From: an archaeon | GTDB taxonomy: Archaea; Aenigmatarchaeota; Aenigmatarchaeia; GW2011-AR5 | Reading direction: 5' to 3' | DNA: 64,000 nucleotides | Assembly: GCA_028279825.1 (NCBI GenBank) | Contig: JANQNA010000002.1 | Location: forward strand, 1 to 64,000 | Part shown: piece by piece, positions 6,014 to 25,942 of the stretch | Layout of the letters: each line of letters opens with the position of its first letter | How positions within the stretch are numbered: the first letter of the stretch is position 1 | Position numbers and translations under genes: made by a program | Notes under the pieces: model-generated | The model's database searches: none | The model's input: the letters and a program-made list of their open reading frames with translations, nothing else | Told to the model about the DNA's origin: nothing

Positions 6014-6054
6014 GGGCCGGTGGCTGCAGTAATATACCACCGCCCCGCACTCAT
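6014..6054 (+). terminator. Cassette hairpin plus GCACTCAT
   Basis: GGGCCGGTGG pairs with CCACCGCCCC and is followed directly by GCACTCAT, the octamer shared by most insert intergenic regions. Confidence 0.6.
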
Positions 6055-6110
6055 ATGAGCTCTTCGAAAAAGCTCAACCAAAATTCATCCATACACGAAC
6101 ACGACGCAAA
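6047..6110 (+). repeat. Long intergenic repeat, copy 1
   Basis: About 60 bp nearly identical to copies at 7755-7817 and 20238-20300. It contains an inverted repeat around TCGAAAAAGCTC and the run CATACACGAACACGAC, and ends in the A-rich leader of the next gene. Confidence 0.8.
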
Positions 6111-6141
6111 GAACCCAAAACCCAAAAACGGAGAAAGAACG

Positions 6142-6645
6142 ATGACACTGTCTCAAGAGCAGAGTAGAGAAGTTGAGGGAACGGTACGCGTATGGATCGC
6201 AAACAGGCTGCGCGTTGATCCCACCGATGAACGGGTGAAGCGGATCGCTCTTGCGGTGGCTCAGGATGCTTCCAATGAGGAAAGTGTACCGCTGTTTCTG
6301 GAGAACATCTCCGGCGTGATCTCCCGCCATGAAGGAAGCCTGAAGAAACTCGAGGTGAATATCGCTAATCGAGTGTACAAACAACTCGGACAGAAGGTTA
6401 CCAACTTCGCAACCATGCTCAGGATGGTCGGCAAACCCGAGCTTGCCGAATTCATGGAAGATCCGGCCAACAAGAACAAGTCGGGTGTCAGGGAAGCTCT
6501 TGCCGAACTCCAAGAGCTCCGGAGGAAGCATCCTGAGGAGCAGGCGCTGAGTCTGCTTGTCGGGTTCCTTGAGCTGGGCCTGGCGACGGCCAACGGCGAA
6601 CACGTTGCGGCGACCAGAAGACTCGTCGAGGCCCTTGGCTCGTAA
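6142..6645 (+). CDS. Helical cytosolic protein, unknown
   Basis: The 167-residue product is soluble and helix-rich, with no signal peptide or membrane segment. ATG 6142 is set by the leader CCCAAAAACGGAGAAAG ending 5 bp upstream; the longer open frame from 6004 would read through the hairpin and repeat. The C-terminal half (from about residue 110) is Leu/Glu/Ala-rich like helical repeat folds. No family recognised. It is a single-gene cassette bounded by hairpins on both sides. Confidence 0.7.
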   Translation: MTLSQEQSREVEGTVRVWIANRLRVDPTDERVKRIALAVAQDASNEESVPLFLENISGVISRHEGSLKKLEVNIANRVYKQLGQKVTNFATMLRMVGKPELAEFMEDPANKNKSGVREALAELQELRRKHPEEQALSLLVGFLELGLATANGEHVAATRRLVEALGS

Positions 6646-6652
6646 TCCACAA

Positions 6653-6685
6653 GGCACGGTGCGTCTTCCCGTGCCACGCAATAAT
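6653..6685 (+). terminator. Cassette hairpin plus GCAATAAT
   Basis: GGCACGG pairs with CCGTGCC over a TGCGTCTTC loop; ACGCAATAAT follows in place of a U-tract. Confidence 0.65.
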
Positions 6686-6742
6686 TCATATTCATAAACG
6701 TAAACGACGCAAACCCAAAACCCAAAAACGGAGAAAGAGAAA

Positions 6743-7411
6743 ATGTCGAGGAATCAAGAGAGTTCGCGAAGCCGTTCTGAGAAGAAAGGCCTGAGCTTGT
6801 CACTTCGTCGCCGCCACGTGAAACAAGACACGTTGGGCGATAGGATCGGCATGATCATGCCGGCATTTGCATTGCTCTGCGTGGTCGTCTACGCCGGGAT
6901 CACCTGGGGACCTCAGACTGTCCAGACTGTAAAGTCAAGCTACGAGCAGTGGCAGACCGAAAATGAACTCGCAGAGCAACAGGGCAGTCGCTGCGATGGA
7001 GTGTTCGACGTCGAGCTGATCAACGAGGAGACCATGTTCGACGACGGGAAGGCGACTTTCCGTTTCGACCCGATCGACCGCTACGCGTGGAAGGGATTCT
7101 ACCTTGCGGTCTACGACGGATCGCAAGAGATCGGTGAACAGAAACTCCTTGCCAAGAGCACCGGCGAATTCGCCTACCATCGTGGACGAATGTCCACTCT
7201 AGGATCGTCTCTCGCCACAGTGGAGCTGCCTGCTGGCGACAGCTGCTACTATCTCCATGTCGTCACTGGTTGTGGGACAGCCGCTCATAATCTTAATGGA
7301 GGTGACTACTTCGGCAACGAGTACTTCAGGAAGGCGTTCAACCTCAAGACCGCCGGCTGCTTCGTCTCGACGGAGGATCAGAAAACGTCGATGGCCCACT
7401 GGCTCAACTAG
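6743..7411 (+). CDS. Membrane-anchored exported protein with the CG/GGDY domain
   Basis: The 222-residue protein has a basic cytosolic tail of about 35 residues, one transmembrane helix (about 36-55), then an extracytoplasmic domain. That domain contains SCYYLHVVTGCG, GGDYFGNEYFRKAF and a closing KTAGC. The same order of motifs is found in the three lipoproteins at 13438, 14604 and 16062, so these four are paralogs with probable disulfides. The leader CCCAAAAACGGAGAAAG places the start at 6743. Function unknown. Confidence 0.7.
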   Translation: MSRNQESSRSRSEKKGLSLSLRRRHVKQDTLGDRIGMIMPAFALLCVVVYAGITWGPQTVQTVKSSYEQWQTENELAEQQGSRCDGVFDVELINEETMFDDGKATFRFDPIDRYAWKGFYLAVYDGSQEIGEQKLLAKSTGEFAYHRGRMSTLGSSLATVELPAGDSCYYLHVVTGCGTAAHNLNGGDYFGNEYFRKAFNLKTAGCFVSTEDQKTSMAHWLN

Positions 7412-7420
7412 TTCCTCAAA

Positions 7421-7453
7421 GGATGTGGAGCGCATCCCACATCCCGTAATAAT
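7421..7453 (+). terminator. Cassette hairpin plus GTAATAAT
   Basis: GGATGTGG pairs with CCACATCC over AGCGCATC and is followed by a one-base variant of the octamer. Confidence 0.65.
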
Positions 7454-7508
7454 ACTGAATCATAAGAACACGTAGTAAAACCCAAAACCCAAAAACGGAG
7501 AAAGAACA

Positions 7509-7715
7509 ATGAGAAGGCACTTCAAGAGACCGGAACAACCGACTCATGTTCACACGAAAGATGAACTGACGCCGAATCAGATCATGGATTTGTGTGGACC
7601 CTTCCCGGTATCCCATGTGGATCCCTTCGCCACGGGCAAGCCGCAGCGCAGGCACCGGCGGAACAGGAACCAACGCGAGGAGTTGCTCGATCTAAGGGAC
7701 GCCCGAGGCTACTGA
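7509..7715 (+). CDS. Small basic protein, unknown
   Basis: The 68-residue product is rich in Arg, His and Pro, with a strongly basic patch (RRHRRNRNQR) near residue 50 and no membrane segment. The leader CCCAAAAACGGAGAAAG ends 5 bp before the ATG, and a hairpin cassette closes the gene, which is the main reason to call it. It could bind nucleic acid, but no fold is recognised. Confidence 0.6.
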   Translation: MRRHFKRPEQPTHVHTKDELTPNQIMDLCGPFPVSHVDPFATGKPQRRHRRNRNQREELLDLRDARGY

Positions 7716-7729
7716 TCCAACTTTCGAAA

Positions 7730-7762
7730 GGACGTGGAGCGCATCCCACGTCCTGCACTCAT
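7730..7762 (+). terminator. Cassette hairpin plus GCACTCAT
   Basis: GGACGTGG pairs with CCACGTCC over AGCGCATC; the loop is identical to that of the preceding hairpin at 7421. Confidence 0.65.
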
Positions 7763-7817
7763 ATGAGCTTTTCGAAAAAGCTCAACCAAAATTCATCCAT
7801 ACACGAACACGACACAA
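7755..7817 (+). repeat. Long intergenic repeat, copy 2
   Basis: Matches the 6047 copy almost base for base and contains the perfect inverted repeat GAGCTTTTCGAAAAAGCTC. Confidence 0.8.
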
Positions 7818-7847
7818 AACCCTAAACCCAAAAACGGAGAAAGAGAA

Positions 7848-8159
7848 ATGTTTGGTTTCGAGATTTTCGAGGTACTTATCGGCCACTTCATGCTGGACGT
7901 GGTCGGTATCAAGATCGAGACAGCCCTGGTTGTCATCGAGACGATCGCCAAGATCGTCCCCATCAGTGCGGCTCTTTGTGCCGCCTCTGCTGTCGTTCTC
8001 TGGTATCAGAGCAAAGTACTCAGGGTACCTGAAGAGAAGTGGTCTTTCGGAAGAGTAGCGACTGCCATCACGAGCCTATCGTTCGGGCTGCTACTGTCGA
8101 TCGGCTATTTCTTCCAAGCTCCGGTCACGGTACATTGGATCCGTTCTCTCTTCGGCTGA
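7848..8159 (+). CDS. Small membrane protein, three hydrophobic segments
   Basis: The 103-residue product has hydrophobic segments at about residues 10-27, 35-52 and 70-95, with a short charged loop (KVLRVPEEKWSFGR) between the second and third. ATG 7848 follows a CCCAAAAACGGAGAAAG leader. It could be read as a holin-like or small integral membrane protein, but no family-specific motif supports that. Confidence 0.65.
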   Translation: MFGFEIFEVLIGHFMLDVVGIKIETALVVIETIAKIVPISAALCAASAVVLWYQSKVLRVPEEKWSFGRVATAITSLSFGLLLSIGYFFQAPVTVHWIRSLFG

Positions 8160-8167
8160 GCAGCCAA

Positions 8168-8210
8168 GGGTGTGATTGAACTAAGAATTCAGTCACGCCC
8201 ACGCACTAAT
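8168..8210 (+). terminator. Cassette hairpin plus GCACTAAT
   Basis: GGGTGTGA pairs with TCACGCCC (one G-U) around an inner TTGAA/TTCAG helix; ACGCACTAAT follows. Confidence 0.6.
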
Positions 8211-8220
8211 AAAGTTCTGC

Positions 8221-8624
8221 GGTCGCGCAGTGGACAGGTTCCTGTTTTCTCGCCGTGGCTAAACCCCGCCAAGCCCAGAACGGAACCGAGAACTTTTTAG
8301 GGGGTATCCCAGGTTCTCTCGTCTGCTGCGCGTCCTCCAATTTCAAACGGGAACTCACCGGGCTGAGTGACAGGCAGACAATCCGAAGTCTAATGCGTGC
8401 ATCAGCGATAACGCGTCCACGCGACGACTGACTTGCGGATTAAGAAGAACCTTGACAAAACAGGATCTCTGTGCTCTGCGTAAGACGAGTACGTCTGTCT
8501 GGAACAGGTTAACGCCCAATCACCTGGATTAGTTCCCGACCAGTTCTGTGTGTCTGCCGGGTTCATGCGTCCCAGTGTTTTTCCGGGGGAGGACATTGGG
8601 ATACCCTCCTAATGGACCCGGCAG
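8221..8624 (+). ncRNA. Large multi-domain structured RNA candidate
   Basis: About 400 bp with no convincing ORF but several long helices. Domain 1 is closed by CGCGCAG (8224-8230) with CTGCGCG (8326-8332) and holds GGTTCC/GGAACC and GAGAACT/AGGTTCTC hairpins. Domain 2 pairs 8380-8390 with 8430-8441 over 11 bp and contains CGCGTCCACGCG. Domain 3 pairs CTGCCGGGTTCAT (8554-8566) with ATGGACCCGGCAG (8612-8624) and encloses CCCAGTGT/ACATTGGG. GGAGG 8588-8592 could pair with CCTCC 8605-8609 as a pseudoknot. It does not match RNase P or tmRNA signatures I know. The pairing is seen; expression is inferred. Confidence 0.6.
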
Positions 8625-8649
8625 CCACTCCAACCTTACGGAGGTTGAC

Positions 8650-8742
8650 ATGGAGGTAAAAGCGAAACCGTTGACACTTGCTGAGGTGATCATCATGGCA
8701 GTTTTGCTTGTGGGAACTTTCGTGATGATGTCGTTCTACTAA
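8650..8742 (+). CDS. Thirty-residue single-helix membrane peptide
   Basis: A short ORF starts at ATG 8650, 5 bp after a strong ACGGAGG site. The peptide has a polar N-terminus (MEVKAKPLT) and one hydrophobic helix ending MMSFY. It directly follows the structured RNA, whose 3' helix ends 25 bp upstream, so the RNA may be its leader. It is then closed by a cassette hairpin. Confidence 0.55.
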   Translation: MEVKAKPLTLAEVIIMAVLLVGTFVMMSFY

Positions 8743-8747
8743 AACCA

Positions 8748-8781
8748 GAGCACAGTGTGTACTCCTGTGCTCAGCAATTAT
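8748..8781 (+). terminator. Cassette hairpin plus GCAATTAT
   Basis: GAGCACAG pairs with CTGTGCTC and is followed by AGCAATTAT. Confidence 0.6.
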
Positions 8782-8784
8782 ACA

Positions 8785-8820
8785 TGCATTCATCCCTAAC
8801 AGGATGAAGTTACATCCTGG
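8785..8820 (+). repeat. Two-hairpin element, partial copy
   Basis: TTCATCC pairs with GGATGAA as in the elements at 13302, 19316 and 24106, but the second GTTGCACC/GGTGCATG hairpin is degenerate here. Confidence 0.55.
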
Positions 8821-8831
8821 AAAACACAACA

Positions 8832-8902
8832 GGGAAGGGACATGATGTTTGTACACACCCCCCCCCACGGACCTCGTGTCCCTTCCCGTGGTTCGCACTC
8901 AT
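8832..8902 (+). terminator. Eleven-bp cassette hairpin with a poly-C loop, plus GCACTCAT
   Basis: GGGAAGGGACA pairs perfectly with TGTCCCTTCCC. The long loop contains an uninterrupted C run. GCACTCAT follows. Confidence 0.65.
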
Positions 8903-8941
8903 TCGTAAACGACGTCAAACCCAAAAACGGAGAAACGAAAG

Positions 8942-9643
8942 ATGACTTGCCAAGATGAGTCCGTAAGAGAAGTCTCGGAAGGTCAAGAGATGCCCCTCCA
9001 ACATAGGCTGCTTGTTGTGGCAGCCTTTTTGCTGGTTGTGATTCTTTTCGCGGTCTTCTGCCCCAAGCCTTTAAGTGCGCAGCCGATTTCTGGCACGCAC
9101 TGCGTCTTCTGGGCTGAACAGAACCTGGAATCTTCAAGGGTGCTGAACGTCTCGCTCAACAGCAACTTCGGTGCTTCTCTGAGAAACTGCTTCGATGTGG
9201 AGCTTCGTCTTGCAAGTACCGAACCGAAAGAGAAGAAGCTGGAGATCGACTACGATGCCATCGCGTTGAGGTACGGCAAGATATACGAAATTTTTCACGC
9301 CCCCGACTGGAACTATCCACTCGAATGTCAACCCTGGAACTTCTGTTTGGAGCCCGGCATTTCCACACTGAAGAACGCCATGTGGTTCTACACCAAGCAG
9401 GAGATGATTGAGGTTGGTGCAAGTCAGCTGGTCATTTCCACGAGTGATATGGAACACCGATTCCCCATCGAGATAAGAGTCCTTGGAAGTGCCGCTTCAA
9501 TTCTCCTTAACACACTGTCTGAGAGGAGGATCATCAACCCGGAGACGCAGAAGAAGGTTCGGAAGCGCGCCAAGATCATCACGGGTCTGTCCGTCGTTGC
9601 AACCATGATTGTCGTCCCGGCGGTCGTAAATATGCAACGATAA
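8942..9643 (+). CDS. Exported protein with two membrane helices, unknown
   Basis: The 233-residue protein has an N-terminal hydrophobic helix at about residues 22-42 ending near LSAQPISG, which could be a signal anchor or a cleaved signal. An extracytoplasmic domain with four cysteines follows (residues 52-140), then a C-terminal helix (about 212-230) preceded by a basic KKVRKRAK. The fold is not recognised. ATG 8942 follows CCCAAAAACGGAGAAAC. Confidence 0.65.
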   Translation: MTCQDESVREVSEGQEMPLQHRLLVVAAFLLVVILFAVFCPKPLSAQPISGTHCVFWAEQNLESSRVLNVSLNSNFGASLRNCFDVELRLASTEPKEKKLEIDYDAIALRYGKIYEIFHAPDWNYPLECQPWNFCLEPGISTLKNAMWFYTKQEMIEVGASQLVISTSDMEHRFPIEIRVLGSAASILLNTLSERRIINPETQKKVRKRAKIITGLSVVATMIVVPAVVNMQR

Positions 9644-9692
9644 TTCGTAATGGGAAGCAGATCATCGCGGGTATGCAACAGTAGCTCGCAAC

Positions 9693-9732
9693 GGAAGAGC
9701 GACACGATCTTGTCGTTCTTCCACGCAATCAT
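9693..9732 (+). terminator. Cassette hairpin plus GCAATCAT
   Basis: GGAAGA...CGACA pairs with TGTCG...TTCTTCC, followed by ACGCAATCAT. Confidence 0.65.
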
Positions 9733-9810
9733 TCTGACTCATATAACCTTTTCATTCATCCATACACGAACACGTAGTAAAACCCAAAACCCTAAACAGG
9801 AGAAAGAAAA

Positions 9811-10674
9811 ATGAAGTCCTACTTGAACTCAAAACCACTGACCAGAGGAGAAAAGGTGATCGTTGTCGTGGCGATCCTTCTTCTCCTGTGCTTGGCGTTT
9901 GCACCTGTGGTGATCGACAAGGTAACACTCTGGCAAGAACGCCAGGAACGCCAGGAGCTGGCCCAGGAACTCCGTAAGGACATCACGCGCCTGGTCTACA
10001 GGATGGATACCTCAGTGGGTCCTTTGGAGAACAGAAAACGCATTGACTTTTTAGACCAGAAAGTTGCGCAACTCGAGGAGCTTGGGTATTTAGTCGCGAA
10101 CTTCGGCGGGCGGCGCTGCTCGGGTTACTTCCTGCAGAAAGCTCCCTTGAACCCATTCGACTGGGAAGAATTCGACACAAGATGCAGGGATAGGTGGGGA
10201 CCTCATCCATTTCAAATCAGGGAGCACTACATCCGTGCCACCATGACCAGCAAAGAGGCGGAAGTGGACGACATCCTGGATGACATGAGGAGTGCACTCC
10301 GCCACATACGAGACCCTGAGTATGGTGAGTATTCCAGACAGGACCTGAATGAGGGCATCGAGAGATTGGAACAACTTGGATACACTGTTCGTCATTCCGG
10401 CCGCCGTTTGGTGTTCAAAAAAGGTGACATCATAGAGCGAATGCCTGATGGCAGACAGTACAACTGGTTCTTCGAGAGAAAGGTCGCAGAATTCAACGAT
10501 GAATTCCCACTGCCGGAAGAGAAGACAAGGACTCCGAGTGGTGTGCCTCCAGGAACCGGGTCCCTGATCATGTTGATCGCTGGCATCTGCTACATCTTCT
10601 CAGGAACGATCTCTAAGGCCATCACGATTCTGACCAACAAACCAGGAGCAGCTGCCGTTTTGTTCAAGAAGTAG
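9811..10674 (+). CDS. Membrane protein with an internally duplicated domain
   Basis: The 287-residue protein has a transmembrane helix after an RGEK motif (about residues 15-36) and a C-terminal helix (about 247-268). The soluble middle carries two related halves, each with a helix ending LEELGYLV or LEQLGYTV and then a GGRR or SGRR turn, which suggests an internal duplication of about 100 residues. ATG 9811 follows AAACAGGAGAAAGAAAA. The juxtamembrane GEK motif recurs in the next gene. Confidence 0.65.
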   Translation: MKSYLNSKPLTRGEKVIVVVAILLLLCLAFAPVVIDKVTLWQERQERQELAQELRKDITRLVYRMDTSVGPLENRKRIDFLDQKVAQLEELGYLVANFGGRRCSGYFLQKAPLNPFDWEEFDTRCRDRWGPHPFQIREHYIRATMTSKEAEVDDILDDMRSALRHIRDPEYGEYSRQDLNEGIERLEQLGYTVRHSGRRLVFKKGDIIERMPDGRQYNWFFERKVAEFNDEFPLPEEKTRTPSGVPPGTGSLIMLIAGICYIFSGTISKAITILTNKPGAAAVLFKK

Positions 10675-10681
10675 TCTTCAA

Positions 10682-10713
10682 GAGCGTGGCAATCGTCACG
10701 CTCATGCAATCAT
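10682..10713 (+). terminator. Cassette hairpin plus GCAATCAT
   Basis: GAGCGTG pairs with CACGCTC; ATGCAATCAT follows. Confidence 0.65.
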
Positions 10714-10770
10714 ACTTCATAAGACGTAGAACACAAACGACGTAAAAACCCTAAACAAGGAGAAAGAAGG

Positions 10771-11469
10771 ATGGGAATTCAAGACGAAATCGGAAGAGGA
10801 GTCGTAACGGAGACGAAGCTGAGCTGGGGTGAGAAGCTGGCAGCCTTGCTGATCGTTTTGATTGTTGCCGGTTTCCTGGCAGCAAATCTCGGCTGCGCCC
10901 ATTCCCGGCCGCCCGAGATCTCGAAGCCGCCCAAGGACGCGAAGCCGGCGAATGCCGAGAAGGCCGAGAACGCACAGTTCGTCGAACTCTTCGAGAAGAT
11001 CGATCAACCCATGGTTGTGTCAACGTCCGACGGCCAGACGATGATCATCGAGATGGGGTTTGTCAGGAAGTCGGACATGAAGGCCCCGTACGCGGAACGC
11101 TACGAGAAGGACGTGGACGCTCCGCTTCCGAAGGGGACCCCCGTCTGGGCCAACTTCGGCGACTTCCAGTGCACGCCTCGGAACTTCTTCCCCATCGTCG
11201 AGGAGAGGTGCTTCCAGAATGCCTACGTCAAGGCAACGGTCGCCGGGTCAGAGAAGGAGGAGCACGGGTGGCAGCATATCTACGAGGTTGAGGCTCTGGA
11301 CAACCCCGAGCCTGTTGTGAAGATCCCTGGGTTCCACGTGGACGACGTGGTGGTCTACAGGCACGCCATTCAACACTCCTTCTCGGAGGACATCTACACG
11401 GTGGTCAACCTGCCGGATGAACACGCGGAGTACTCGCAACTCCTCGTCGTGAACTCACGCCTGAACTAG
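10771..11469 (+). CDS. Membrane-anchored exported protein, paralog of the 20748 product
   Basis: The 232-residue protein has a helix at about residues 25-45 ending ANLGCAH, a weak lipobox or simple anchor. A Pro/Lys/Ala-rich linker follows, then a domain with LPKGTPVWANF, VEERCFQNAYVKA and a later IYEVEALD. The protein at 20748 has LPVGTQVWINA, VEDECFREYNKGV and YYYIVKLN in the same order, so the two are paralogs. ATG 10771 follows AAACAAGGAGAAAGAAGG. Function unknown. Confidence 0.65.
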   Translation: MGIQDEIGRGVVTETKLSWGEKLAALLIVLIVAGFLAANLGCAHSRPPEISKPPKDAKPANAEKAENAQFVELFEKIDQPMVVSTSDGQTMIIEMGFVRKSDMKAPYAERYEKDVDAPLPKGTPVWANFGDFQCTPRNFFPIVEERCFQNAYVKATVAGSEKEEHGWQHIYEVEALDNPEPVVKIPGFHVDDVVVYRHAIQHSFSEDIYTVVNLPDEHAEYSQLLVVNSRLN

Positions 11470-11518
11470 GCCTACGATCGTGCGTTCACTAGTCTTGACA
11501 ACATGGAAAAACTAACAC

Positions 11519-11561
11519 GAGGGGCATGAGGTTCACTTACCCCCTGGATCTCATGCCCCTC
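11519..11561 (+). terminator. Twelve-bp perfect intergenic hairpin
   Basis: GAGGGGCATGAG pairs with CTCATGCCCCTC over a 19-nt loop. A CTTCTTCC run follows, with no octamer, and a GGAGAAG site for the next gene comes after it. Confidence 0.65.
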
Positions 11562-11583
11562 TTCTTCCGAAAGGAGAAGAACG

Positions 11584-11874
11584 ATGACGTGGCTTCTGAT
11601 CGGACTCGCGCTCGTTCTGTTCGTTGTTCTCGTGCGTCGTTGGGAGGCTCTCCAGGACCGGCTGTACTACATCTTTGAGGCAGTCACCGGCTACCTGTTT
11701 GGTTTTCTGGACATCATCGATTCACGGACCGAAAGATGGTGGCTTGTTCCCAGAATCATCTCCTGCATCGTGCTGGGGATAGTCTGGATCTTCGCTACGA
11801 TCATCATGTTCATTATCGGCGTGGTACTTTTCGGATACATGCGTACCCTTGAATGTGGTGATGAGTTGTTCTAG
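11584..11874 (+). CDS. Small membrane protein, unknown
   Basis: The 96-residue product has an N-terminal helix (residues 3-18), an amphipathic middle with RRWEALQDRLYYIF, and one long hydrophobic segment near residues 58-85. ATG 11584 follows AAAGGAGAAGAACG. It is unusual in lacking the CCCAAAAA leader. No family recognised. Confidence 0.65.
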   Translation: MTWLLIGLALVLFVVLVRRWEALQDRLYYIFEAVTGYLFGFLDIIDSRTERWWLVPRIISCIVLGIVWIFATIIMFIIGVVLFGYMRTLECGDELF

Positions 11875-11889
11875 GCTAACTGACCCAAA

Positions 11890-11919
11890 GGCGCGAATCA
11901 TTTCGCGCCGCGCAATAAT
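11890..11919 (+). terminator. Cassette hairpin plus GCAATAAT
   Basis: GGCGCGA pairs with TCGCGCC; the octamer follows. The stem is almost the same as the one at 17933. Confidence 0.65.
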
Positions 11920-11925
11920 ACTCCA

Positions 11926-12000
11926 TGGACGCACGGGATTCGAACCCTCCTTTCCGGTTGTTGCAAAACGACCGTTAACCAAATCGGATTCTGTGCGTCC
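11926..12000 (-). ncRNA. tRNA-like structure, possibly degenerate tRNA-Cys(GCA)
   Basis: On the minus strand an 8-bp acceptor-like stem GGACGCAC/GTGCGTCC encloses a D-arm-like CCG ATTTGGTTAA CGG, a GTTTTGCAAC anticodon-like loop and a GGG TTCGAAT CCC T-arm. It is not a standard cloverleaf: about three extra bases precede the D-stem, the anticodon stem has a mismatch, and the T-stem has only three clear pairs. No CCA is encoded. All neighbouring genes run on the opposite strand. It could be a decayed tRNA, a phage-type tRNA or a processing signal. Confidence 0.5.
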
Positions 12001-12055
12001 GCCAACTGACTAATAAGACGTACCAAACCCAAAACCCTAAACAGGAGAAAGAAAG

Positions 12056-12568: not shown

Positions 12569-12597
12569 GCAGTTCCTTGATGTTCCTCAATCCGAAC

Positions 12598-19366: not shown

Positions 19367-19437
19367 AACAGGGGAGAGGGGATTGGATACTTTCTCTCCA
19401 GATCCAATAACCTTGGCATGTACACGAGGATAATCCT

Positions 19438-19767: not shown

Positions 19768-20202
19768 ATGAGTAAAAAGAGAGAAGACGCGTATCGTGAC
19801 GAAGTACGGCAAAGACGCAGCGATGCTGTAATGGAAGAGGCCAACCTGCGAATCCTTCTCATGGATACGGAGGAACTTCTCTACGCATCCAGGGAACGAC
19901 TGGAAGCTAAGCTCAATAAAGTGAAACTTCTTCAAGACCCTCTTGATCCACGCGAGGGGGAGCAACTGGCTCTTGCAAAGGATTTCGAAACCGCCATGGA
20001 GGAGCATCGCAATGTTTTGCTACAGCTGGGCAGGGTTGCGATCCTGCGTGAAACTGCCAGGGAGAAGTTCGTTCATGCTTTTGCGGAGCTCAGCTCAACA
20101 GACCGCCAAAACCGGGCTGCCAGCAAGGATCTCAGAACGGCGATGGATTTGATGACCCCTGAGCAACTGCGCAAGTTCAGAAGCAGGCAGCGACGGCAGT
20201 AG
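19768..20202 (+). CDS. Coiled-coil protein, 144 residues
   Basis: The product is nearly all charged helix with heptads over residues 18-110 and a basic C-terminus (RKFRSRQRRQ). It has no membrane segment. ATG 19768 follows AAACAGGAGAAAAGGAA. It may be structural or bind nucleic acid through its tail; no family recognised. Confidence 0.65.
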   Translation: MSKKREDAYRDEVRQRRSDAVMEEANLRILLMDTEELLYASRERLEAKLNKVKLLQDPLDPREGEQLALAKDFETAMEEHRNVLLQLGRVAILRETAREKFVHAFAELSSTDRQNRAASKDLRTAMDLMTPEQLRKFRSRQRRQ

Positions 20203-20209
20203 GCTTCCA

Positions 20210-20245
20210 GAGTCTGTGCTCTGACAGGCAGGCTCTCGCACTCAT
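20210..20245 (+). terminator. Cassette hairpin plus GCACTCAT
   Basis: GAGTCTG pairs with CAGGCTC, followed by TCGCACTCAT. Confidence 0.55.
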
Positions 20246-20300
20246 ATGAGCTTTTCGAAAAAGCTCAACCAAAATTTGTCCATACACGAACACGACGTCA
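20238..20300 (+). repeat. Long intergenic repeat, copy 3
   Basis: Carries the inverted repeat GAGCTTTTCGAAAAAGCTC and CATACACGAACACGAC as in copies 1 and 2, with a TTTGTCC variant in the spacer. It lies about 12.5 kb from copy 2. Confidence 0.8.
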
Positions 20301-20331
20301 AACCCAAAACCCAAAAACAGGAGAAAGAAAG

Positions 20332-20640
20332 ATGAAGCAAGTTTTTTTGGCACTCGGTGCGGAACTGACCGATCAACAACTTCACTACCTCGGTGATGTT
20401 GCCGATGTTGGTGATGATCTCAAGTTTGCTGATGTGGTTCTCACTGGCGACCCGTTGGTTCCCAAAACCGTTATTCGAGTCTACAAGAGGAAGATCGTGA
20501 TCCTCATCACCACCGGGCTCAGTGAGCAGGAAGGAGCAAAGCTGCAGGAACTCGGCGACCGTGTCAAGATCGTATGCATCGAAAATCCCAGGAGCATTGC
20601 GGCTGCGGTCCGTATCCGGAACATCATCAAAACGCTGTAG
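20332..20640 (+). CDS. Small alpha/beta protein, paralog of the 18832 product
   Basis: The 102-residue product shares the strand-helix layout of the 18832 protein, including LTDQQLHYLGDVADV and a C-terminal helix. ATG 20332 follows CCCAAAAACAGGAGAAAG. A response-regulator-like or small Rossmann fold is possible, but I see no phosphorylation or nucleotide-binding motif. Confidence 0.6.
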   Translation: MKQVFLALGAELTDQQLHYLGDVADVGDDLKFADVVLTGDPLVPKTVIRVYKRKIVILITTGLSEQEGAKLQELGDRVKIVCIENPRSIAAAVRIRNIIKTL

Positions 20641-20675
20641 GCGAAGGGCATGACATCTTTGTCGTGCAACTTCAT

Positions 20676-20700
20676 GGACACGGTGATTCTCCCCGTGTCC
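20676..20700 (+). terminator. Cassette hairpin
   Basis: GGACACGG pairs with CCGTGTCC; CGCACTCAT follows at 20701. Confidence 0.65.
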
Positions 20701-20747
20701 CGCACTCATACTTCGTAAACCCAAAACCCAAAAACGGAGAAAGAACG

Positions 20748-21479
20748 ATGACACCAGAAAAGAGTAGAGTGCTGATCGTTGCGATCATGGCACTTGTGCT
20801 GTTTGCTGTGGTCGGTGTTGCAACTTCTTTCGCTGAAGTCAGCATGACGGAAGAGAGAATCCTTCCGAACGTCCCGGCTCCGGGTTCGTATCCTCTCGTG
20901 GCTTTCGGCGGACAACATCTGCCCGTTGGAACCCAGGTGTGGATCAACGCCGACAGCAAGAGTCCCTGTGCCTCTGAAAAGTATCCGAGCGTTGAGGACG
21001 AGTGCTTTCGTGAATACAACAAGGGAGTCATCAAGAGAGTCATTGCAAGGAACAACGGCTTTCACGATAGTGTTCGCCAATACTACTACATCGTCAAGCT
21101 CAACGGTCAGAACGGCGCGGCGCTGAATCATGTGCGCGATACACATCTGGACAACGCGTTCATGACGTACAACCTCCCGGAGAAGTGGGTCCGATACTCG
21201 CGATACATCCTTCGCAACACGGGTCTCTGCTACCCGACGAGGACGTTCGAACTTCCAAGAACCGGATACGAACAACCGGTGGCGGCAGACCCGGGATGCG
21301 CAGAGCTGGGGTTGACAGACGAGGAGTGTGAGGAGCTCACCGCATCAATTCAGCAACTCGACAGGAGTTTCGAGGAGCTGAGGGTGACGCTTCGTATGCT
21401 CGGTTATGTAATCCTGGCCGGGCTTATAGTGATAACAGTGGTCTTTCTGGCTCATGTGATTCGTCACTGGAACGACTGA
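20748..21479 (+). CDS. Exported protein with LPRTG-like motif and C-terminal helix
   Basis: The 243-residue protein has a signal or anchor helix (about residues 8-28, ending SFAEV). Its central domain is paralogous to 10771 (LPVGTQVWINA, VEDECFREYNKGV, YYYIVKLN). Near residue 166 is FELPRTGYEQP, resembling the PRTGY ends of lipoproteins 1 and 3 and formally fitting the sortase LPxTG pattern. About 70 residues later come a transmembrane helix and RHWND. In typical sortase substrates the motif is directly next to the helix, so sorting is doubtful. ATG 20748 follows CCCAAAAACGGAGAAAG. Confidence 0.65.
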   Translation: MTPEKSRVLIVAIMALVLFAVVGVATSFAEVSMTEERILPNVPAPGSYPLVAFGGQHLPVGTQVWINADSKSPCASEKYPSVEDECFREYNKGVIKRVIARNNGFHDSVRQYYYIVKLNGQNGAALNHVRDTHLDNAFMTYNLPEKWVRYSRYILRNTGLCYPTRTFELPRTGYEQPVAADPGCAELGLTDEECEELTASIQQLDRSFEELRVTLRMLGYVILAGLIVITVVFLAHVIRHWND

Positions 21480-21510
21480 ATATCATGAACCCTAAACCGG
21501 AGGAAAGGAA

Positions 21511-21942
21511 ATGACAAACCTGTGGAAGTACTCGACACTGTTCTTCGTGTTTCAGCTGATTGTTGGTGGATGTGTATACTACTGGAACAGCAAATTACCG
21601 ATCAGCGACACGAACAACAACGCAATGACCATCGGCGTCGTTGTTATCTTTACTGCCGTATTTGTTTTACTGGCTGCAGCCATCCATGACAGATTAGCCG
21701 TCTGCCTTGGCACTGTCTCTGTTTTTGCTGTCATGGCATTCGTCATGACCATAGTTGACTATTTGTTTTTGGCGTTTTTCTTCATTGGTGTCGCCCTCTT
21801 CGGTCTCGGGGTTGCCACTAATGACACAAAACGTCAAGATGAAACTCGTGCTCCGTTCTGGGCGCTGATGCTTGCGGGACTTCCTCTTGGAATCGGCACT
21901 GTTGCCGGTGGCGTCCTGCTGCTCAATCGTAAGTGGCGATAG
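21511..21942 (+). CDS. Four-helix membrane protein
   Basis: The 143-residue product has hydrophobic segments at about residues 8-25, 40-58, 63-100 (two helices) and 115-138. ATG 21511 follows AAACCGGAGGAAAGGAA. Only 31 bp separate it from the previous gene, without a hairpin, so the two likely share a transcript. Confidence 0.65.
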   Translation: MTNLWKYSTLFFVFQLIVGGCVYYWNSKLPISDTNNNAMTIGVVVIFTAVFVLLAAAIHDRLAVCLGTVSVFAVMAFVMTIVDYLFLAFFFIGVALFGLGVATNDTKRQDETRAPFWALMLAGLPLGIGTVAGGVLLLNRKWR

Positions 21943-21951
21943 TAACTTAAT

Positions 21952-21985
21952 GGACACGGTGCATCTTCCCGTGTCCCGCACTCAT
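21952..21985 (+). terminator. Cassette hairpin plus GCACTCAT
   Basis: GGACACGG pairs with CCGTGTCC; almost identical to the 20676 hairpin. Confidence 0.65.
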
Positions 21986-22024
21986 ACTTCGTAAAACCAA
22001 AAACCCTAAACCGGAGAAAGAACG

Positions 22025-22396
22025 ATGAAGAAACTTTTTGTCGGACTTCTGGCGATGACGTTCGTTCTGTCGGTTCTGCTGGCAACACCCGTCTTTGCCG
22101 ACAACCCGAATGTTGAGAAGGCCGAGGTGCAAAAGGAATCGCAGCACCTCTCAGAGATCAGGCACCTATACGCCATCTCCGTCTACACGGGCAAGGTGAT
22201 TCTCTACTCGACTGTCGCCGCCCGGGAAAACCTACCGGATGTCTTGGTGACGAGGACGCACAACGGGGTAGAAGTCTACACCTGGCTCGATGCTGAGAAG
22301 AAAGGCCATGAGCATCACAAGGCCGATGGCGAGATCATCCACATCAGTGACGTGAGGCTTGAACTGTCAGATGACGGGACGATCCACATCGAGTAG
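22025..22396 (+). CDS. Secreted protein, 123 residues
   Basis: A clear signal peptide ends TPVFADNP. The mature ~98 residues are mostly beta-strand and include VYTGKVILYSTVAA and a histidine-rich KKGHEHHKADGEIIH. ATG 22025 follows AAACCGGAGAAAG. No family recognised. Confidence 0.65.
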   Translation: MKKLFVGLLAMTFVLSVLLATPVFADNPNVEKAEVQKESQHLSEIRHLYAISVYTGKVILYSTVAARENLPDVLVTRTHNGVEVYTWLDAEKKGHEHHKADGEIIHISDVRLELSDDGTIHIE

Positions 22397-22427
22397 ACGT
22401 ACCAATACTTCCAGGCGCGAGGCCTAA

Positions 22428-22459
22428 GGGAAGCGGAGCAACGCTTCCCACGCATTCAT
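22428..22459 (+). terminator. Cassette hairpin plus GCATTCAT
   Basis: GGGAAGC pairs with GCTTCCC; stem as at 13258 and 25875. Confidence 0.65.
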
Positions 22460-22515
22460 ACTCGTACCGGCCTCATTCACACTGTGTGAGTGTTGGCAAA
22501 AACGGGAGGTGTACC

Positions 22516-22587
22516 ATGCGAGCAACTGGAATGACCAAGAAGGAACGTCTCTCGGCTGAAGCGATCGTGACCTCGTTCCGGACCTAG
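22516..22587 (+). CDS. Micro-ORF, 23 residues
   Basis: ATG 22516 is 5 bp after GGGAGGTG. The peptide begins MRATGMTKKERLSAEAI and ends with TAG. It is followed by a hairpin GCCTG/CAGGC at 22640. Same layout as the micro-ORFs at 18396, 22832 and 24222. Confidence 0.45.
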   Translation: MRATGMTKKERLSAEAIVTSFRT

Positions 22588-22639
22588 GGCTGCCAAGGTC
22601 AACTGAGTAACCGATCGCCATCTTTAGATTTGCATCAGT

Positions 22640-22660
22640 GCCTGGCTCTCATAGCAGGCC
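22640..22660 (+). terminator. Hairpin with GCTCTCATAG loop, copy 1
   Basis: GCCTG pairs with CAGGC. The same loop recurs at 22956. A TTCTTTTTC run lies 15 bp downstream. Confidence 0.5.
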
Positions 22661-22831
22661 GGAACTCAATAATTCTTTTTCATAAAACACATGCACTCGT
22701 ACAAGCTGTAGTGTGCAAGTGGTAGCATCAAGACAGCGGGAAAATCATCTGGTGATGCTGAAGTGGAGAGGCATGGTGCTTCTCTTTTCTACAGCAACGG
22801 CTCTCTGAAAATTTCCAGGAGGAAATGTGTT
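22661..22831. other. Structured leader of the 22832 micro-ORF
   Basis: It contains GCACT/AGTGTGC, AGCATCA/TGATGCT and GAGAGGC/GCTTCTC helices in series. No larger ORF is visible. Confidence 0.45.
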
Positions 22832-22891
22832 ATGAGAGTCTTCACGCCGTTTGCCGAGATCGCGGAGACCAGCCACATCTGCCCGGGCTGA
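22832..22891 (+). CDS. Micro-ORF, 19 residues
   Basis: ATG 22832 follows CAGGAGGAAATGTGTT. The peptide is MRVFTPFAEIAETSHICPG. A terminator-like hairpin is at 22956. Confidence 0.4.
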   Translation: MRVFTPFAEIAETSHICPG

Positions 22892-22955
22892 ATCCGAAGG
22901 GCGACTCGTAACGTAAAGGGCTTGTAGCTCTGGTCGCCGGCTTGAGGCAAGTCCT

Positions 22956-22981
22956 GGGGCCTGGCTCTCATAGCAGGCCCC
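22956..22981 (+). terminator. Hairpin with GCTCTCATAG loop, copy 2
   Basis: GGGGCCTG pairs with CAGGCCCC. Confidence 0.6.
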
Positions 22982-23004
22982 GAATTCTGAAAGAGAGGTG
23001 AAGT

Positions 23005-23742
23005 GTGACGAGGATGTATGCCGTTCTGCTTGTGCTGATGGCTTCGCCGGTCATGGCGCAGGTGACAGAAGCACCGGTGAGATTGAACATGGAGTTCCGG
23101 TTTAATTTCACCCAGCACGATCCCTTTGTGAAGAGTCTGGAGGTTCAGGACCTTGCGCTGGGTGCTGACTCAGACAACACGACCGTTTTCGAGGGACGCG
23201 ATTCAATATCGTTTGATCCGTCCCTTGCGCTTACCCTGAAAGTCTACAGGCTCTTCCTGGCTGCGGGTGCAACAAGACCATTTGGTTTCTTGCACACAAT
23301 GGACAATCTTTCGTTCATCAACAGCCATAGATCTTTGAAGTGGGGCATCGAGGAGACAGTCAGGCCTGGCCCGTTCTTCGAGGCAGGTGCATCATTGAGT
23401 GACAAGTACCTTCTGGTGGTCGGCTACAACGAGGCACCATATCAACTGAAGTTTGCCGGCGGCAAAATGGAATACGGGTGCGACTTCTGCGGTAACCGCA
23501 CCGAAAGATTTGACGTTAGCCGCCGGGTTCAGATCGCCGAGTCTACCCTGAAGAGGTTGTACGCATCGTTGCGTATTGACTTCGGCAGAGCAGGCTTCAC
23601 TATCCTGGCGTCCCGAACAGAAAACCCATTCACAACAAACAGCCTTCCCTTTTCCGGTACGGAGATCATAATCCAGCCTGACACCAGCGAAAGATGGGGA
23701 TTCAATGCAACATTCTTCCTGAAGTTAAAGAAAACGAGGTGA
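23005..23742 (+). CDS. Secreted beta-barrel-like protein
   Basis: The 245-residue precursor has a signal peptide ending ASPVMAQ. The mature part is rich in alternating strands with aromatic girdles and ends FNATFFLKLKKTR, as in small outer-membrane barrels, though the terminal residue is not aromatic. Two cysteines lie in YGCDFCGN. GTG 23005 is 5 bp after AGAGAGGTG; ATG 23014 is possible. If truly a barrel, it points to a Gram-negative source. The signal peptide's nucleotide sequence is close to that of 25522. Confidence 0.55.
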   Translation: MTRMYAVLLVLMASPVMAQVTEAPVRLNMEFRFNFTQHDPFVKSLEVQDLALGADSDNTTVFEGRDSISFDPSLALTLKVYRLFLAAGATRPFGFLHTMDNLSFINSHRSLKWGIEETVRPGPFFEAGASLSDKYLLVVGYNEAPYQLKFAGGKMEYGCDFCGNRTERFDVSRRVQIAESTLKRLYASLRIDFGRAGFTILASRTENPFTTNSLPFSGTEIIIQPDTSERWGFNATFFLKLKKTR

Positions 23743-23746
23743 GGAG

Positions 23747-24040
23747 GTGTTTCTAGAGAGAAAGTGGGTGGGGAAAACTTCCAGGTGGAAGTTCCGGCTC
23801 AGGGACTGGAGCATACTTCTTGGACTTACTATTCTGCTCCGTTTCATGAGCACGTTCCTGCTGAATCCCTTCGGGCGTACAATGCCGGTGTGGTTCATCG
23901 TCTGCATCGGCATGGTCATCTGGATGACCCGGGACAGGAACTTCTGGAACTACAAGCCGCCGTACAGGTTCTACACAAGAGTGGTCAATTTCGTTTTATG
24001 TGCATCCGCGATTCTGCTTTTGTTGTCCGCTCTTGACTAG
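23747..24040 (+). CDS. Three-helix membrane protein, 97 residues
   Basis: GTG 23747 directly follows a GAGGTGAGGAG site that overlaps the previous stop, implying translational coupling to the beta-barrel-like gene. Hydrophobic segments lie at about residues 20-40, 47-60 and 78-96, separated by basic loops (KTSRWKFRLRDW, RDRNFWNYKPPYR). Unknown family. Confidence 0.55.
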   Translation: MFLERKWVGKTSRWKFRLRDWSILLGLTILLRFMSTFLLNPFGRTMPVWFIVCIGMVIWMTRDRNFWNYKPPYRFYTRVVNFVLCASAILLLLSALD

Positions 24041-24069
24041 CTTGCAGCAAGAATATGACTCAGTCGCAA

Positions 24070-24096
24070 GGAGCAGCGCACCGCTCCTGCACTCAT
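24070..24096 (+). terminator. Cassette hairpin plus GCACTCAT
   Basis: GGAGC pairs with GCTCC, followed by TGCACTCAT. Confidence 0.55.
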
Positions 24097-24105
24097 AAGA
24101 ACTGA

Positions 24106-24175
24106 AAGTTCGTTCATAAGCCTTAAGCATTCATTCCCGTCGGGGATGAAGTTGCACTGCCTGCGGTGGTGCATG
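24106..24175 (+). repeat. Two-hairpin RNA element, full copy
   Basis: Starts AAGTTCGTTCATAAGCCTT, identical to 13302. Hairpin 1 is TTCATTCCC/GGGGATGAA and hairpin 2 is GTTGCAC...GTGCATG; sequence differences fall in loops or keep pairing. Confidence 0.7.
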
Positions 24176-24221
24176 TGGTGGAGAGAGTGATCTCTCTTGA
24201 ATGACTCCGAAGGGAGTTTCA

Positions 24222-24281
24222 ATGTTGAAGCGAAAGACTGGCAGGAACTGTCTTCTCGCGGCCAAGGGCATCTGGGACTGA
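24222..24281 (+). CDS. Micro-ORF, 19 residues
   Basis: ATG 24222 is 5 bp after AAGGGAG. The basic peptide is MLKRKTGRNCLLAAKGIWD. It is followed by the terminator at 24336, the twin of the one after the 18396 micro-ORF. Confidence 0.4.
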   Translation: MLKRKTGRNCLLAAKGIWD

Positions 24282-24335
24282 CCGAGGTCTGGTCCGGATG
24301 CCGGTGAAGCTGAGTCTATGACTCAGTGTGTCGTA

Positions 24336-24370
24336 CCCGGGTCTGGCATAAAACCCAGGCCCGGGTTTTT
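24336..24370 (+). terminator. Intrinsic terminator with U-tract, copy 2
   Basis: CCCGGGTCTGG pairs with CCAGGCCCGGG over CATAAAAC, then TTTTT. Confidence 0.8.
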
Positions 24371-24385
24371 GAAAGGAGAGGGGAG

Positions 24386-24994
24386 ATGAGACTATTTGTG
24401 TTGTTGGCGGTGCTCTTACTGTCTATGGCCACACTTCCAGCGAGTGCTGCGTCCTTTACGCTCGTGGAGAATGCCACAGAGCAACCTGCCGAGGCTCCTG
24501 AACATGGCGAAGACTGTGGTGTTGAGGACTGCGATGCTGGGGAGATTTGCGGTCTCTGCTGCCTTGCCAGTTTTGCCGTGGGGATAGTTGTGATAGGTTT
24601 TTTGGCGATCTTGTTCATTCCACTAGGTCTCAAAAAACAGGCATCTGGAAAAGGCTTCACTGTCATCGAGTTGATAATCGCGGTGGCGATCATCGGCGCC
24701 ATTGCGAGCATCGCGATTCCGAGTTTCTTACGTGGAGAGAAGATCCAGATGCATCGTGTTGGGAAGCCAACCCAGTACATCACCGTAACGGACCGCGAGG
24801 GCAACCTTCTGATTCAGGGTGTTGTACTGCAGGTGAATGTAAACAACATTGGCCCTGAAACTACGTGCATCCGCTTATCGGATCAGCCACTGGATGTCAA
24901 GGACGGCAAGGTCGAGGGCATTTGTCCAGACCTTGAGCAGACTCAGAACCCCAGATACCAACGATGCGTTCCGTACAGTGTCGTAGGAGGCTAG
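24386..24994 (+). CDS. Signal peptide/TM protein with an internal type IV pilin motif
   Basis: The 202-residue product starts with a signal peptide ending PASAAS, then a cysteine-rich acidic stretch (CGVEDCDAGEICGLCC) and a transmembrane helix (about residues 60-80). Next, at about residues 88-115, comes KGFTVIELIIAVAIIGAIAS, a textbook bacterial prepilin site and pilin helix, followed by a soluble tail with two to three cysteines. Normal prepilins have this motif at the N-terminus; here ~85 residues precede it. It could be a fusion or a protein processed twice. ATG 24386 follows AAAGGAGAGGGGAG. Confidence 0.7.
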   Translation: MRLFVLLAVLLLSMATLPASAASFTLVENATEQPAEAPEHGEDCGVEDCDAGEICGLCCLASFAVGIVVIGFLAILFIPLGLKKQASGKGFTVIELIIAVAIIGAIASIAIPSFLRGEKIQMHRVGKPTQYITVTDREGNLLIQGVVLQVNVNNIGPETTCIRLSDQPLDVKDGKVEGICPDLEQTQNPRYQRCVPYSVVGG

Positions 24995-25001
24995 GCACCA
25001 A

Positions 25002-25041
25002 GAGCGTAGCTACAACATTCATTGCTACGCTCAGCACTAAT
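25002..25041 (+). terminator. Cassette hairpin plus GCACTAAT
   Basis: GAGCGTAGC pairs with GCTACGCTC; AGCACTAAT follows. Confidence 0.65.
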
Positions 25042-25072
25042 TCGTAAAAACCCTAAACAAGGAGGAAAGACG

Positions 25073-25453
25073 ATGCCTTCTATTGAGACGTGGGAAATCT
25101 GGACACTTCTTCTCATAGTGTCTGGTATTTGGGCAAGCCTCAAATGGAACATCTTGACATGTACATCAGTCGCGATAAGCTTCATTTTCTTGGTGGTGAC
25201 CTACTCCATCAAGGAAACCGGATCACTCGGGGCCTTCGGGGGCATGTTCTTCACATACCTCAAATATGCCATCGTCATGACGTTTTTGGCGGTGGTGTTC
25301 TTGATCGCTTTGCGAAAGGGATTGCGACGGGGTGCTGTGCCTGCAAGTTCCCGTACGCACCTGATCATTATTTTTGTGGTCTATTTAATTGGCACCATGG
25401 TGGCTGTGATAGTCACTGTTGCATCAGGGATTACAGAGATGCTCTTGATGTGA
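25073..25453 (+). CDS. Four-helix membrane protein, 126 residues
   Basis: Hydrophobic segments at about residues 8-22, 28-45, 55-82 and 98-122. ATG 25073 follows AAACAAGGAGGAAAGACG. Layout resembles the 21511 product but no clear sequence kinship is seen. Confidence 0.65.
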   Translation: MPSIETWEIWTLLLIVSGIWASLKWNILTCTSVAISFIFLVVTYSIKETGSLGAFGGMFFTYLKYAIVMTFLAVVFLIALRKGLRRGAVPASSRTHLIIIFVVYLIGTMVAVIVTVASGITEMLLM

Positions 25454-25460
25454 TCCAACG

Positions 25461-25490
25461 AGGAGAGCAACCGCTCTCCTCCGCACTCAT
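25461..25490 (+). terminator. Cassette hairpin plus GCACTCAT
   Basis: AGGAGAGC pairs with GCTCTCCT over AACC. Confidence 0.65.
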
Positions 25491-25521
25491 AAGTACAAAC
25501 CCTAAACAAGGAGGAAAGACG

Positions 25522-25866
25522 ATGATCCGAATCATCTCGTTGCTGATTGTCGTTGCCATGGCTTCTCCGGTCATGGCGGATACCGGCCTGGCGATCGACT
25601 ACGACTCCATCGCCGAGGAAGCCGTACAAAGTTCAGAGGCATCGAACAAAGACAGCAAGAAGCCTCGGGTCGTTGACAGCCCCGACGACTGTGAATGCTG
25701 GGAGAAGGTCTGTATTCTTGACGACCCGATCCTGGGTCAGCATGAATACGTTCCAGAGAGCTGCGAGGAATTGTTGAGATCTGACCGCCCTAAGATACCA
25801 TTGGGCAGCCTCGTTCCTACTGTGGTCATTACGGTCCTGCTTATCGTCCTCACACCAAGCGAGTAA
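25522..25866 (+). CDS. Secreted or anchored small protein
   Basis: The 114-residue precursor has a signal peptide ending ASPVMADT, an acidic middle with four cysteines (CECWEKVC and one more) and a C-terminal hydrophobic helix (about 95-111). ATG 25522 follows AAACAAGGAGGAAAGACG. The signal peptide matches that of 23005 closely, suggesting reuse of one export module. Confidence 0.65.
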   Translation: MIRIISLLIVVAMASPVMADTGLAIDYDSIAEEAVQSSEASNKDSKKPRVVDSPDDCECWEKVCILDDPILGQHEYVPESCEELLRSDRPKIPLGSLVPTVVITVLLIVLTPSE

Positions 25867-25874
25867 CGCAACAA

Positions 25875-25906
25875 GGGAAGCGGAATACTGCTTCCCATGC
25901 ACTCTT
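25875..25906 (+). terminator. Cassette hairpin with GCACTCTT variant
   Basis: GGGAAGC pairs with GCTTCCC; the octamer is a variant. Confidence 0.6.
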
Positions 25907-25942
25907 ACTTAAAACCAAAAACCCTAAACCGGAGGAAAGACG

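What the first reader, a model, noticed from the sequence alone, without database searches (positions are those of the whole stretch)
6014..25941. Repeated intercistronic cassette: hairpin, GCAMTMAT octamer, A-rich leader, ATG
More than 20 intergenic regions share one order: a perfect hairpin with variable sequence, then an octamer such as GCAATCAT, GCACTCAT or GCACTAAT, a short spacer often with CGTAAA, then CCCAAAAACGGAGAAAG or CCCTAAACAGGAGAAAG and the start codon. Most hairpins lack a U-tract, so the octamer may stand in for one, or be a promoter or RNA-processing site. The layout recalls the mobile promoter-plus-stem-loop cassettes (PeSLs) described in T4-type phages, but the sequence is different.
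Basis: partly seen in the sequence, partly recalled or inferred. Interest (0 to 1): 0.85.

Follow-up and report, generated by a model that had tools for sequence, protein, structure and literature searches.

The report
Hairpin-plus-octamer gene punctuation in foreign island
A 21.5-kb stretch of foreign-looking DNA in an archaeal genome separates about 25 unknown genes with the same small unit, an RNA hairpin butted against a fixed 8-base word, many followed by a shared ribosome-binding leader; it looks like an unrecorded system for cutting up or ending and restarting gene messages.

Summary
In the block about 5,540-27,070, GCA[ACT]T[ACT]AT occurs 28 times on the + strand, never inside an ORF, and once on the other strand. 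For GCAMTMAT the count is 20 forward and 0 reverse, against 1.1 expected. A strong hairpin ends 0-2 bases before nearly every octamer. Related hairpins covary (100% of cells paired, four of eight pairs with double changes), and their non-Watson-Crick pairs lean to G.U over A.C (14:3), so the hairpin is probably kept as + strand RNA. The leader AAACCCWAAAMMGGAGRAA is a separate ribosome-binding module. It also stands at tight gene junctions without a hairpin. Leader similarity starts, and hairpin similarity ends, at the octamer, so octamers bound shuffling leader-gene-hairpin cassettes. Most hairpins lack U-tracts, sigma-70-like promoters are scarce, and there is no canonical attC. Three genes sit about 22 bases behind a hairpin, with no room for a promoter. 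I therefore favour RNA punctuation of long messages (cleavage or leaky termination at the octamer) over terminator plus octamer promoter, but sequence alone cannot settle this. No relative was found in phages, plasmids, IMG/VR or the genomes searched. The layout resembles T4 PeSLs, but membership is not supported.

The parts
5540..27070 (+). Foreign block that carries the cassettes; about 36 small ORFs, all on the + strand
   Evidence: GC 52% against about 42% in the flanks; ATA 8% of Ile codons against 54%, GC3 68% against 43%, TAG 62% of stops; no Pfam hit over cut-off except DUF11
6014..6054 (+). hairpin + octamer GCACTCAT
6653..6685 (+). hairpin + octamer GCAATAAT (covarying family)
7421..7453 (+). 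hairpin + octamer GTAATAAT (covarying family)
7729..7762 (+). hairpin + octamer GCACTCAT (covarying family)
8168..8210 (+). hairpin + octamer GCACTAAT
8748..8781 (+). hairpin + octamer GCAATTAT
8832..8902 (+). hairpin(s) + octamer GCACTCAT
9693..9732 (+). hairpin + octamer GCAATCAT
10679..10713 (+). hairpin + octamer GCAATCAT
11890..11919 (+). hairpin + octamer GCAATAAT
12598..12624 (+). weak hairpin + octamer GCAATCAT
12925..12955 (+). hairpin + octamer GCACTCAT
13257..13289 (+). hairpin + octamer GCAATCAT
14424..14468 (+). hairpin + octamer GCAATCAT behind lipoprotein paralogue 1
15589..15632 (+). hairpin + octamer GCAATATT behind lipoprotein paralogue 2
15940..15969 (+). hairpin + octamer GCAATTAT
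17540..17582 (+). hairpin + variant octamer GTAATCAG behind lipoprotein paralogue 3
17933..17967 (+). hairpin + variant octamer TGACTCAT
18507..18550 (+). U-tract hairpin followed by octamer GCACTAAT
18693..18727 (+). hairpin + variant octamer TGTCTCAT
19137..19170 (+). hairpin + octamer GCAATCAT (covarying family)
19658..19695 (+). hairpin + variant octamer TGTCTCAT
20209..20245 (+). hairpin + octamer GCACTCAT
20676..20709 (+). hairpin + octamer GCACTCAT (covarying family)
21952..21985 (+). hairpin + octamer GCACTCAT (covarying family)
22428..22459 (+). hairpin + octamer GCATTCAT
24069..24096 (+). hairpin + octamer GCACTCAT
25002..25041 (+). hairpin + octamer GCACTAAT
25460..25490 (+). hairpin + octamer GCACTCAT
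25872..25906 (+). hairpin + octamer GCACTCTT
6119..6144 (+). Consensus A-rich leader / ribosome-binding module (AACCCAAAAACGGAGAAAG...ATG); further copies begin at 6721, 7488, 7827, 8920, 9790, 10749, 12035, 12639, 12972, 19747, 20310, 20727, 21490, 22004, 25051, 25500, 25922, 26255
   Evidence: absent elsewhere in the genome except one 1-mismatch hit
21488..21513 (+). Leader in a 31-nt gene junction without hairpin or octamer (also at 26253-26278)
7755..7835 (+). 81-nt spacer, 85-93% identical at 6047-6127 and 20238-20318; similarity starts at the octamer while the hairpins upstream differ
11519..11583 (+). Strong hairpin without octamer directly before the ribosome-binding site of gene 11584 (22 nt to ATG): read-through needed
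24335..24388 (+). U-tract hairpin (exact 34-nt duplicate of 18508-18541) ending about 20 nt before the ATG of gene 24386: read-through needed

Best explanation
Each unit is an intercistronic RNA punctuation mark. The block is transcribed as long + strand messages. At each gene boundary the RNA folds a short G+C-rich hairpin whose foot touches a conserved single-stranded word, GCAMTMAT(W). I infer that the word, read together with the hairpin, sets the 3' end of the upstream message, by endonuclease cleavage at the word or by leaky termination there with the word in place of a U-tract. The hairpin would then shield that 3' end, and the downstream cistron would begin with an open A-rich leader and a strong, nearly invariant ribosome-binding site. 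Because each gene is bounded by octamers, leader-gene-hairpin cassettes and spacer halves have been copied and reassorted. Shown: repeated layout, flush spacing, paired evolution of the hairpins, RNA-strand bias, separability of the leader, seam at the octamer. Inferred: transcript ends at the octamer, and the enzyme responsible. Unknown: donor organism.
For: Octamer columns almost invariant over 26 sites with unlike hairpins. Stem end to octamer gap 0-2 nt in 25 of 27, mean 1.3, the spacing of a U-tract behind a terminator stem; hairpin scores peak sharply there. Six related hairpins: 100% paired, 4 of 8 pairs changed on both sides, 0/500 shuffles as high in covariation score, slid versions 36-60% paired. 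Non-Watson-Crick pairs G.T 14, A.C 3, other 6, against 253/191/660 in control hairpins. U-tract terminators not enriched (17 against 20.6) and sigma-70-like promoters scarce (2 against 9.9). Genes 11584, 23005 and 24386 lie about 22 nt behind a hairpin, so messages must pass it. Gene junctions under 40 nt have neither hairpin nor octamer. Octamer somewhat more open than in shuffles, 0.67 against 0.58; start regions more open than host ones, 0.64 against 0.42.
Against: No RNA data. Every gene with a hairpin and octamer upstream could instead have its own promoter at the octamer. One unit has both U-tract and octamer (18507-18550), so the octamer is not simply a U-tract substitute. Five GCATTCAT copies lack a flush hairpin. 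No nuclease or polymerase is recognisable in the block. The G.T excess partly rests on one paralogous hairpin family (5 of 14).
Confidence: 0.5

Rival explanations
1. PeSL-like composite: the hairpin terminates the upstream gene and the octamer is a minimal promoter (like the T4 late octamer) for the downstream gene, read by an element-encoded sigma factor or polymerase.
For: Octamer always precedes a gene or small ORF by at least 31 nt; in the shortest spacers it is the only conserved DNA that could be a promoter; tightly spaced genes lack it; last genes of the block have none behind them; shuffling of halves at the octamer recalls PeSLs.
Against: A promoter need not sit 0-2 nt from a hairpin foot; G/C at the start of the octamer is unlike known -10 elements; fewer sigma-70-like sites than in shuffles; no sigma factor or polymerase recognisable in the block; several genes must be read through a hairpin.
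Confidence: 0.33
2. The hairpin+octamer is a recombination site and the block is an integron-like cassette array.
For: One orientation, one ORFan per unit, hairpin with conserved core at its foot, similarity breakpoints at the octamer; integrons are known from archaeal MAGs (PMC9668308).
Against: No attC-like R''/R' pairs (0; shuffles 0.56) and no complement of the octamer upstream of hairpins; no integrase recognised in the window; G.U-tolerant, perfect short stems fit RNA rather than single-stranded DNA.
Confidence: 0.06
3. Nothing special: ordinary terminators and ribosome-binding sites of an unknown bacterium or phage, made similar by recent duplication of spacers.
For: Several spacers and genes are clearly duplicated.
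Against: The octamer is kept across hairpins of unrelated sequence while most other positions vary, and most hairpins have no U-tract.
Confidence: 0.11

Closest known systems
PeSLs (promoter-early stem-loops) of T4-type phages
   Same: Stem-loop between genes in an ORFan-rich region, repeated many times, mediating shuffling of genes
   Different: No host-like early promoter at the units; no T4-type gene recognised in the block; hairpin flush with an unrelated octamer; a separate near-invariant leader
Intrinsic (Rho-independent) terminators
   Same: G+C-rich hairpin behind the stop codon; conserved word occupies the position of the U-tract
   Different: No U-tract at most units; genes directly behind some hairpins
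T4 late promoter (TATAAATA)
   Same: Short octamer before genes
   Different: Sequence unrelated, G/C-containing, tied to a hairpin
Intercistronic mRNA processing and stabilising hairpins (for example REP elements; tRNA punctuation in mitochondria), from general knowledge
   Same: Hairpins between co-transcribed genes protecting or defining RNA ends
   Different: Conserved single-stranded octamer at the foot in every unit; not a known family (Rfam: none)
Integron gene cassettes / attC sites
   Same: One-orientation ORFan cassettes with a hairpin and conserved core at the end of each
   Different: No attC core pair, no adjacent integrase

Membership tests
PeSL of T4-type phages | Stem-loop in intergenic regions of a hyperplastic, ORFan-rich region | tested here: met
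   26 units; no family hits over cut-off except DUF11
PeSL of T4-type phages | Host-like (sigma-70) early promoter in the unit | tested here: not met
   2 sigma-70-like sites in 20 kb, 9.9 expected, none at a unit
PeSL of T4-type phages | Lies in a T4-type phage genome | tested here: not met
   No phage DNA match, no tblastn match for the two proteins tried, no significant PHROG hit for ten block proteins
Intrinsic terminator | Hairpin followed by U-tract | tested here: not met
   Octamer instead; terminator-like sites not above shuffles; exceptions 18507 and 24335
Integron attC | RYYYAAC ... GTTRRRY pair | tested here: not met
   0 in the block, shuffles 0.56
Integron attC | intI gene next to the array | tested here: not met
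   Tyrosine integrases only on contigs C2 and C6, not C4; whether either is IntI was not tested
Rfam RNA families | Match to a covariance model | tested here: not met
   No match up to E = 1 in 5500-27200
mRNA processing site | RNA ends at the site | not testable with these tools
   Needs 5'/3' end mapping

The most novel reading that the evidence does not exclude
A previously undescribed gene-expression code of an unknown mobile element: a hairpin read together with a fixed octamer by a dedicated enzyme (endonuclease or polymerase) punctuates polycistronic RNA, and the same octamer is the seam at which gene cassettes are exchanged; the element has moved into an archaeal chromosome.
Probability: 0.3. 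Interest if true: 0.8.

Novelty: new variant of a known kind. Interest (0 to 1): 0.57.

Why it matters
If right, it is a compact, sequence-readable signal that separates genes without U-tract terminators or recognisable promoters, repeated enough to study statistically, and coupled to gene shuffling. It would also give a signature (hairpin flush with GCAMTMAT, leader AAACCCWAAAMMGGAGRAA) for finding the unknown element family that carries it.

Tried and rejected
Relatives: full-collection IMG/VR scans with leader, octamer-leader and hairpin patterns and three protein queries gave nothing or chance single hits without hairpin-octamer units. 155 other genomes of the same phylum and 379 others of a second phylum: no cassette-like match. 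Phage and plasmid blastn/tblastn: none or only chance pieces at E 3-4. Sigma-54 and sigma-70 -10 readings of the octamer do not fit (by eye). The fold of the lipoprotein was too uncertain to search (pLDDT 46). Simple assembly chimera considered: two junctions would have to fall between the same two archaeal genes, which are near neighbours in relatives; not excluded, as no reads are available. The two main PeSL papers are not held in the library, so PeSL features rest on citing papers and general knowledge.

Full report
CHECK. The cassette is there, at the coordinates given. In the block (about 5,540-27,070) GCAMTMAT occurs 20 times on the + strand and 0 on the other, with 1.1 expected per simulation; 16 of the 20 have a strong hairpin ending directly before them, against 4.2% of random block positions, and none of the 9 flank copies has one. 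With one more position relaxed (GCA[ACT]T[ACT]AT) there are 28 forward copies, all between genes, and 1 reverse. Aligned at 26 sites, six of the eight columns are 24-26/26 identical; the next base is always A or T and the one after it a pyrimidine in 22. The consensus leader has 19 copies, all in the block; elsewhere in the genome there is one hit with one mismatch.

SURROUNDINGS. The window lies in a 0.98-Mb archaeal assembly. The block differs from its flanks in GC and codon usage (ATA 8% against 54% of Ile, GC3 68% against 43%), all its ORFs point one way, and none matches Pfam above cut-off except a DUF11 domain. Lipoprotein-type signal sequences and a bacterial type IV pilin motif (N_methyl just under cut-off) suggest a bacterial or phage donor (inference). 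In three relatives of the genus the methyltransferase, tRNA-Leu and thymidine kinase genes are neighbours (tRNA by DNA match); in two of them the HerA-like gene and the small HTH/zinc-ribbon gene are near neighbours elsewhere, with one or two variable ORFs between them (ORF count for one relative read by eye). In the window the block sits between that HerA-like gene and that small gene, which argues for insertion at a variable spot rather than a random chimera. No terminal repeat was found.

ANATOMY. Hairpin: perfect or nearly perfect stems, mostly of 6-16 pairs, foot 0-2 nt from the octamer in 25 of 27 sites, with a sharp maximum of hairpin score there. Six related hairpins keep every pair while four of eight pairs change on both sides, so pairing is selected. 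Non-Watson-Crick pairs are mostly G.T in the + strand (14 against 3 A.C; controls 253 against 191), which points to + strand RNA; part of this comes from one paralogous family. Octamer: predicted mostly unpaired, modestly above shuffles. Leader: an open ribosome-binding module that also occurs at 21,490 and 26,255 in gene junctions without hairpin or octamer, hence separable.

MODULES. Pairs of spacers share the hairpin half only (20 pairs), the leader half only (32) or both (5); alignments of hairpin halves tend to stop just after the octamer, those of the most similar leader halves start at it. The three lipoprotein paralogues (13438, 14604, 16062) share the 3' hairpin family, and related 5' spacers are seen for at least two of them. 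The unit of duplication therefore looks like octamer-to-octamer.

MECHANISM. U-tract terminators are not enriched and sigma-70-like promoters are fewer than in shuffles. Genes at 11584, 23005 and 24386 begin about 22 nt behind a strong hairpin, leaving no room for a promoter, so some read-through is needed. Gene junctions shorter than 40 nt carry neither hairpin nor octamer. I take this to favour polycistronic transcription with RNA punctuation at hairpin+octamer. The main rival is hairpin terminator plus octamer promoter, which the shortest spacers (31 nt from octamer to ATG) allow. An integron-type site is unlikely: no attC core pairs and an RNA-type hairpin.

KNOWN SYSTEMS. PeSLs match in layout and in shuffling (PMC4503421 cites them as promoter early stem loops that mediate shuffling), but the sigma-70 promoter and the T4-type context were tested and not met. 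No Rfam family matches. Searches of phages, plasmids, IMG/VR and sampled genomes found no relative; the genome-contig scan was truncated, so absence there is not shown.

LIMITS. Single locus, no transcript data, no read coverage, no relatives: conservation across species could not be tested, and part of the similarity is by descent within the block.

Noticed in passing
8786, 13323, 19317, 24127 (+): Four copies of a second RNA-like motif, GCATTCATYCC..GGATGRAGTTGCACC..GGTGCATG, each with a possible small ORF starting M(E/K)LH; it begins with an octamer variant but has no flush hairpin upstream.
   Followed up: partly
18508-18541 and 24336-24369 (+): Exact 34-nt duplicate hairpin CCCGGGTCTGGCATAAAACCCAGGCCCGGGTTTT with a U-tract, and a related pair GCCTGGCTCTCATAGCAGGCC near 22640 and 22955; small structured RNAs or terminators near tiny ORFs.
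   Followed up: partly
11918-12005 (-): tRNA-like stretch (acceptor-like GGACGCA/TGCGTCC and T-arm GGGTTCGAATCCC) inside a cassette, not recognised by ARAGORN or Rfam; a similar GGACG...CGTCC closing stem at about 19174-19312.
   Followed up: partly
8203-8650 (+): About 440 nt without an ORF between octamer and the next small gene, G+C-rich with long inverted repeats; possible structured RNA.
   Followed up: no
13438-17507 (+): Three paralogous lipoproteins with a shared Cys-containing N-terminal domain; two end in IPRTGY, and the product of 20749 contains LPRTGY, resembling a sortase-type motif.
   Followed up: partly
3014-27520: In relatives the methyltransferase abuts tRNA-Leu, whose gene in at least one of them carries an intron; here the HerA-like module, the block and a small HTH gene lie between them.
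   Followed up: partly
36684-43328 and 50729-58564 (+): Very large ORFs (2214 and 2611 aa) in the archaeal flank.
   Followed up: no
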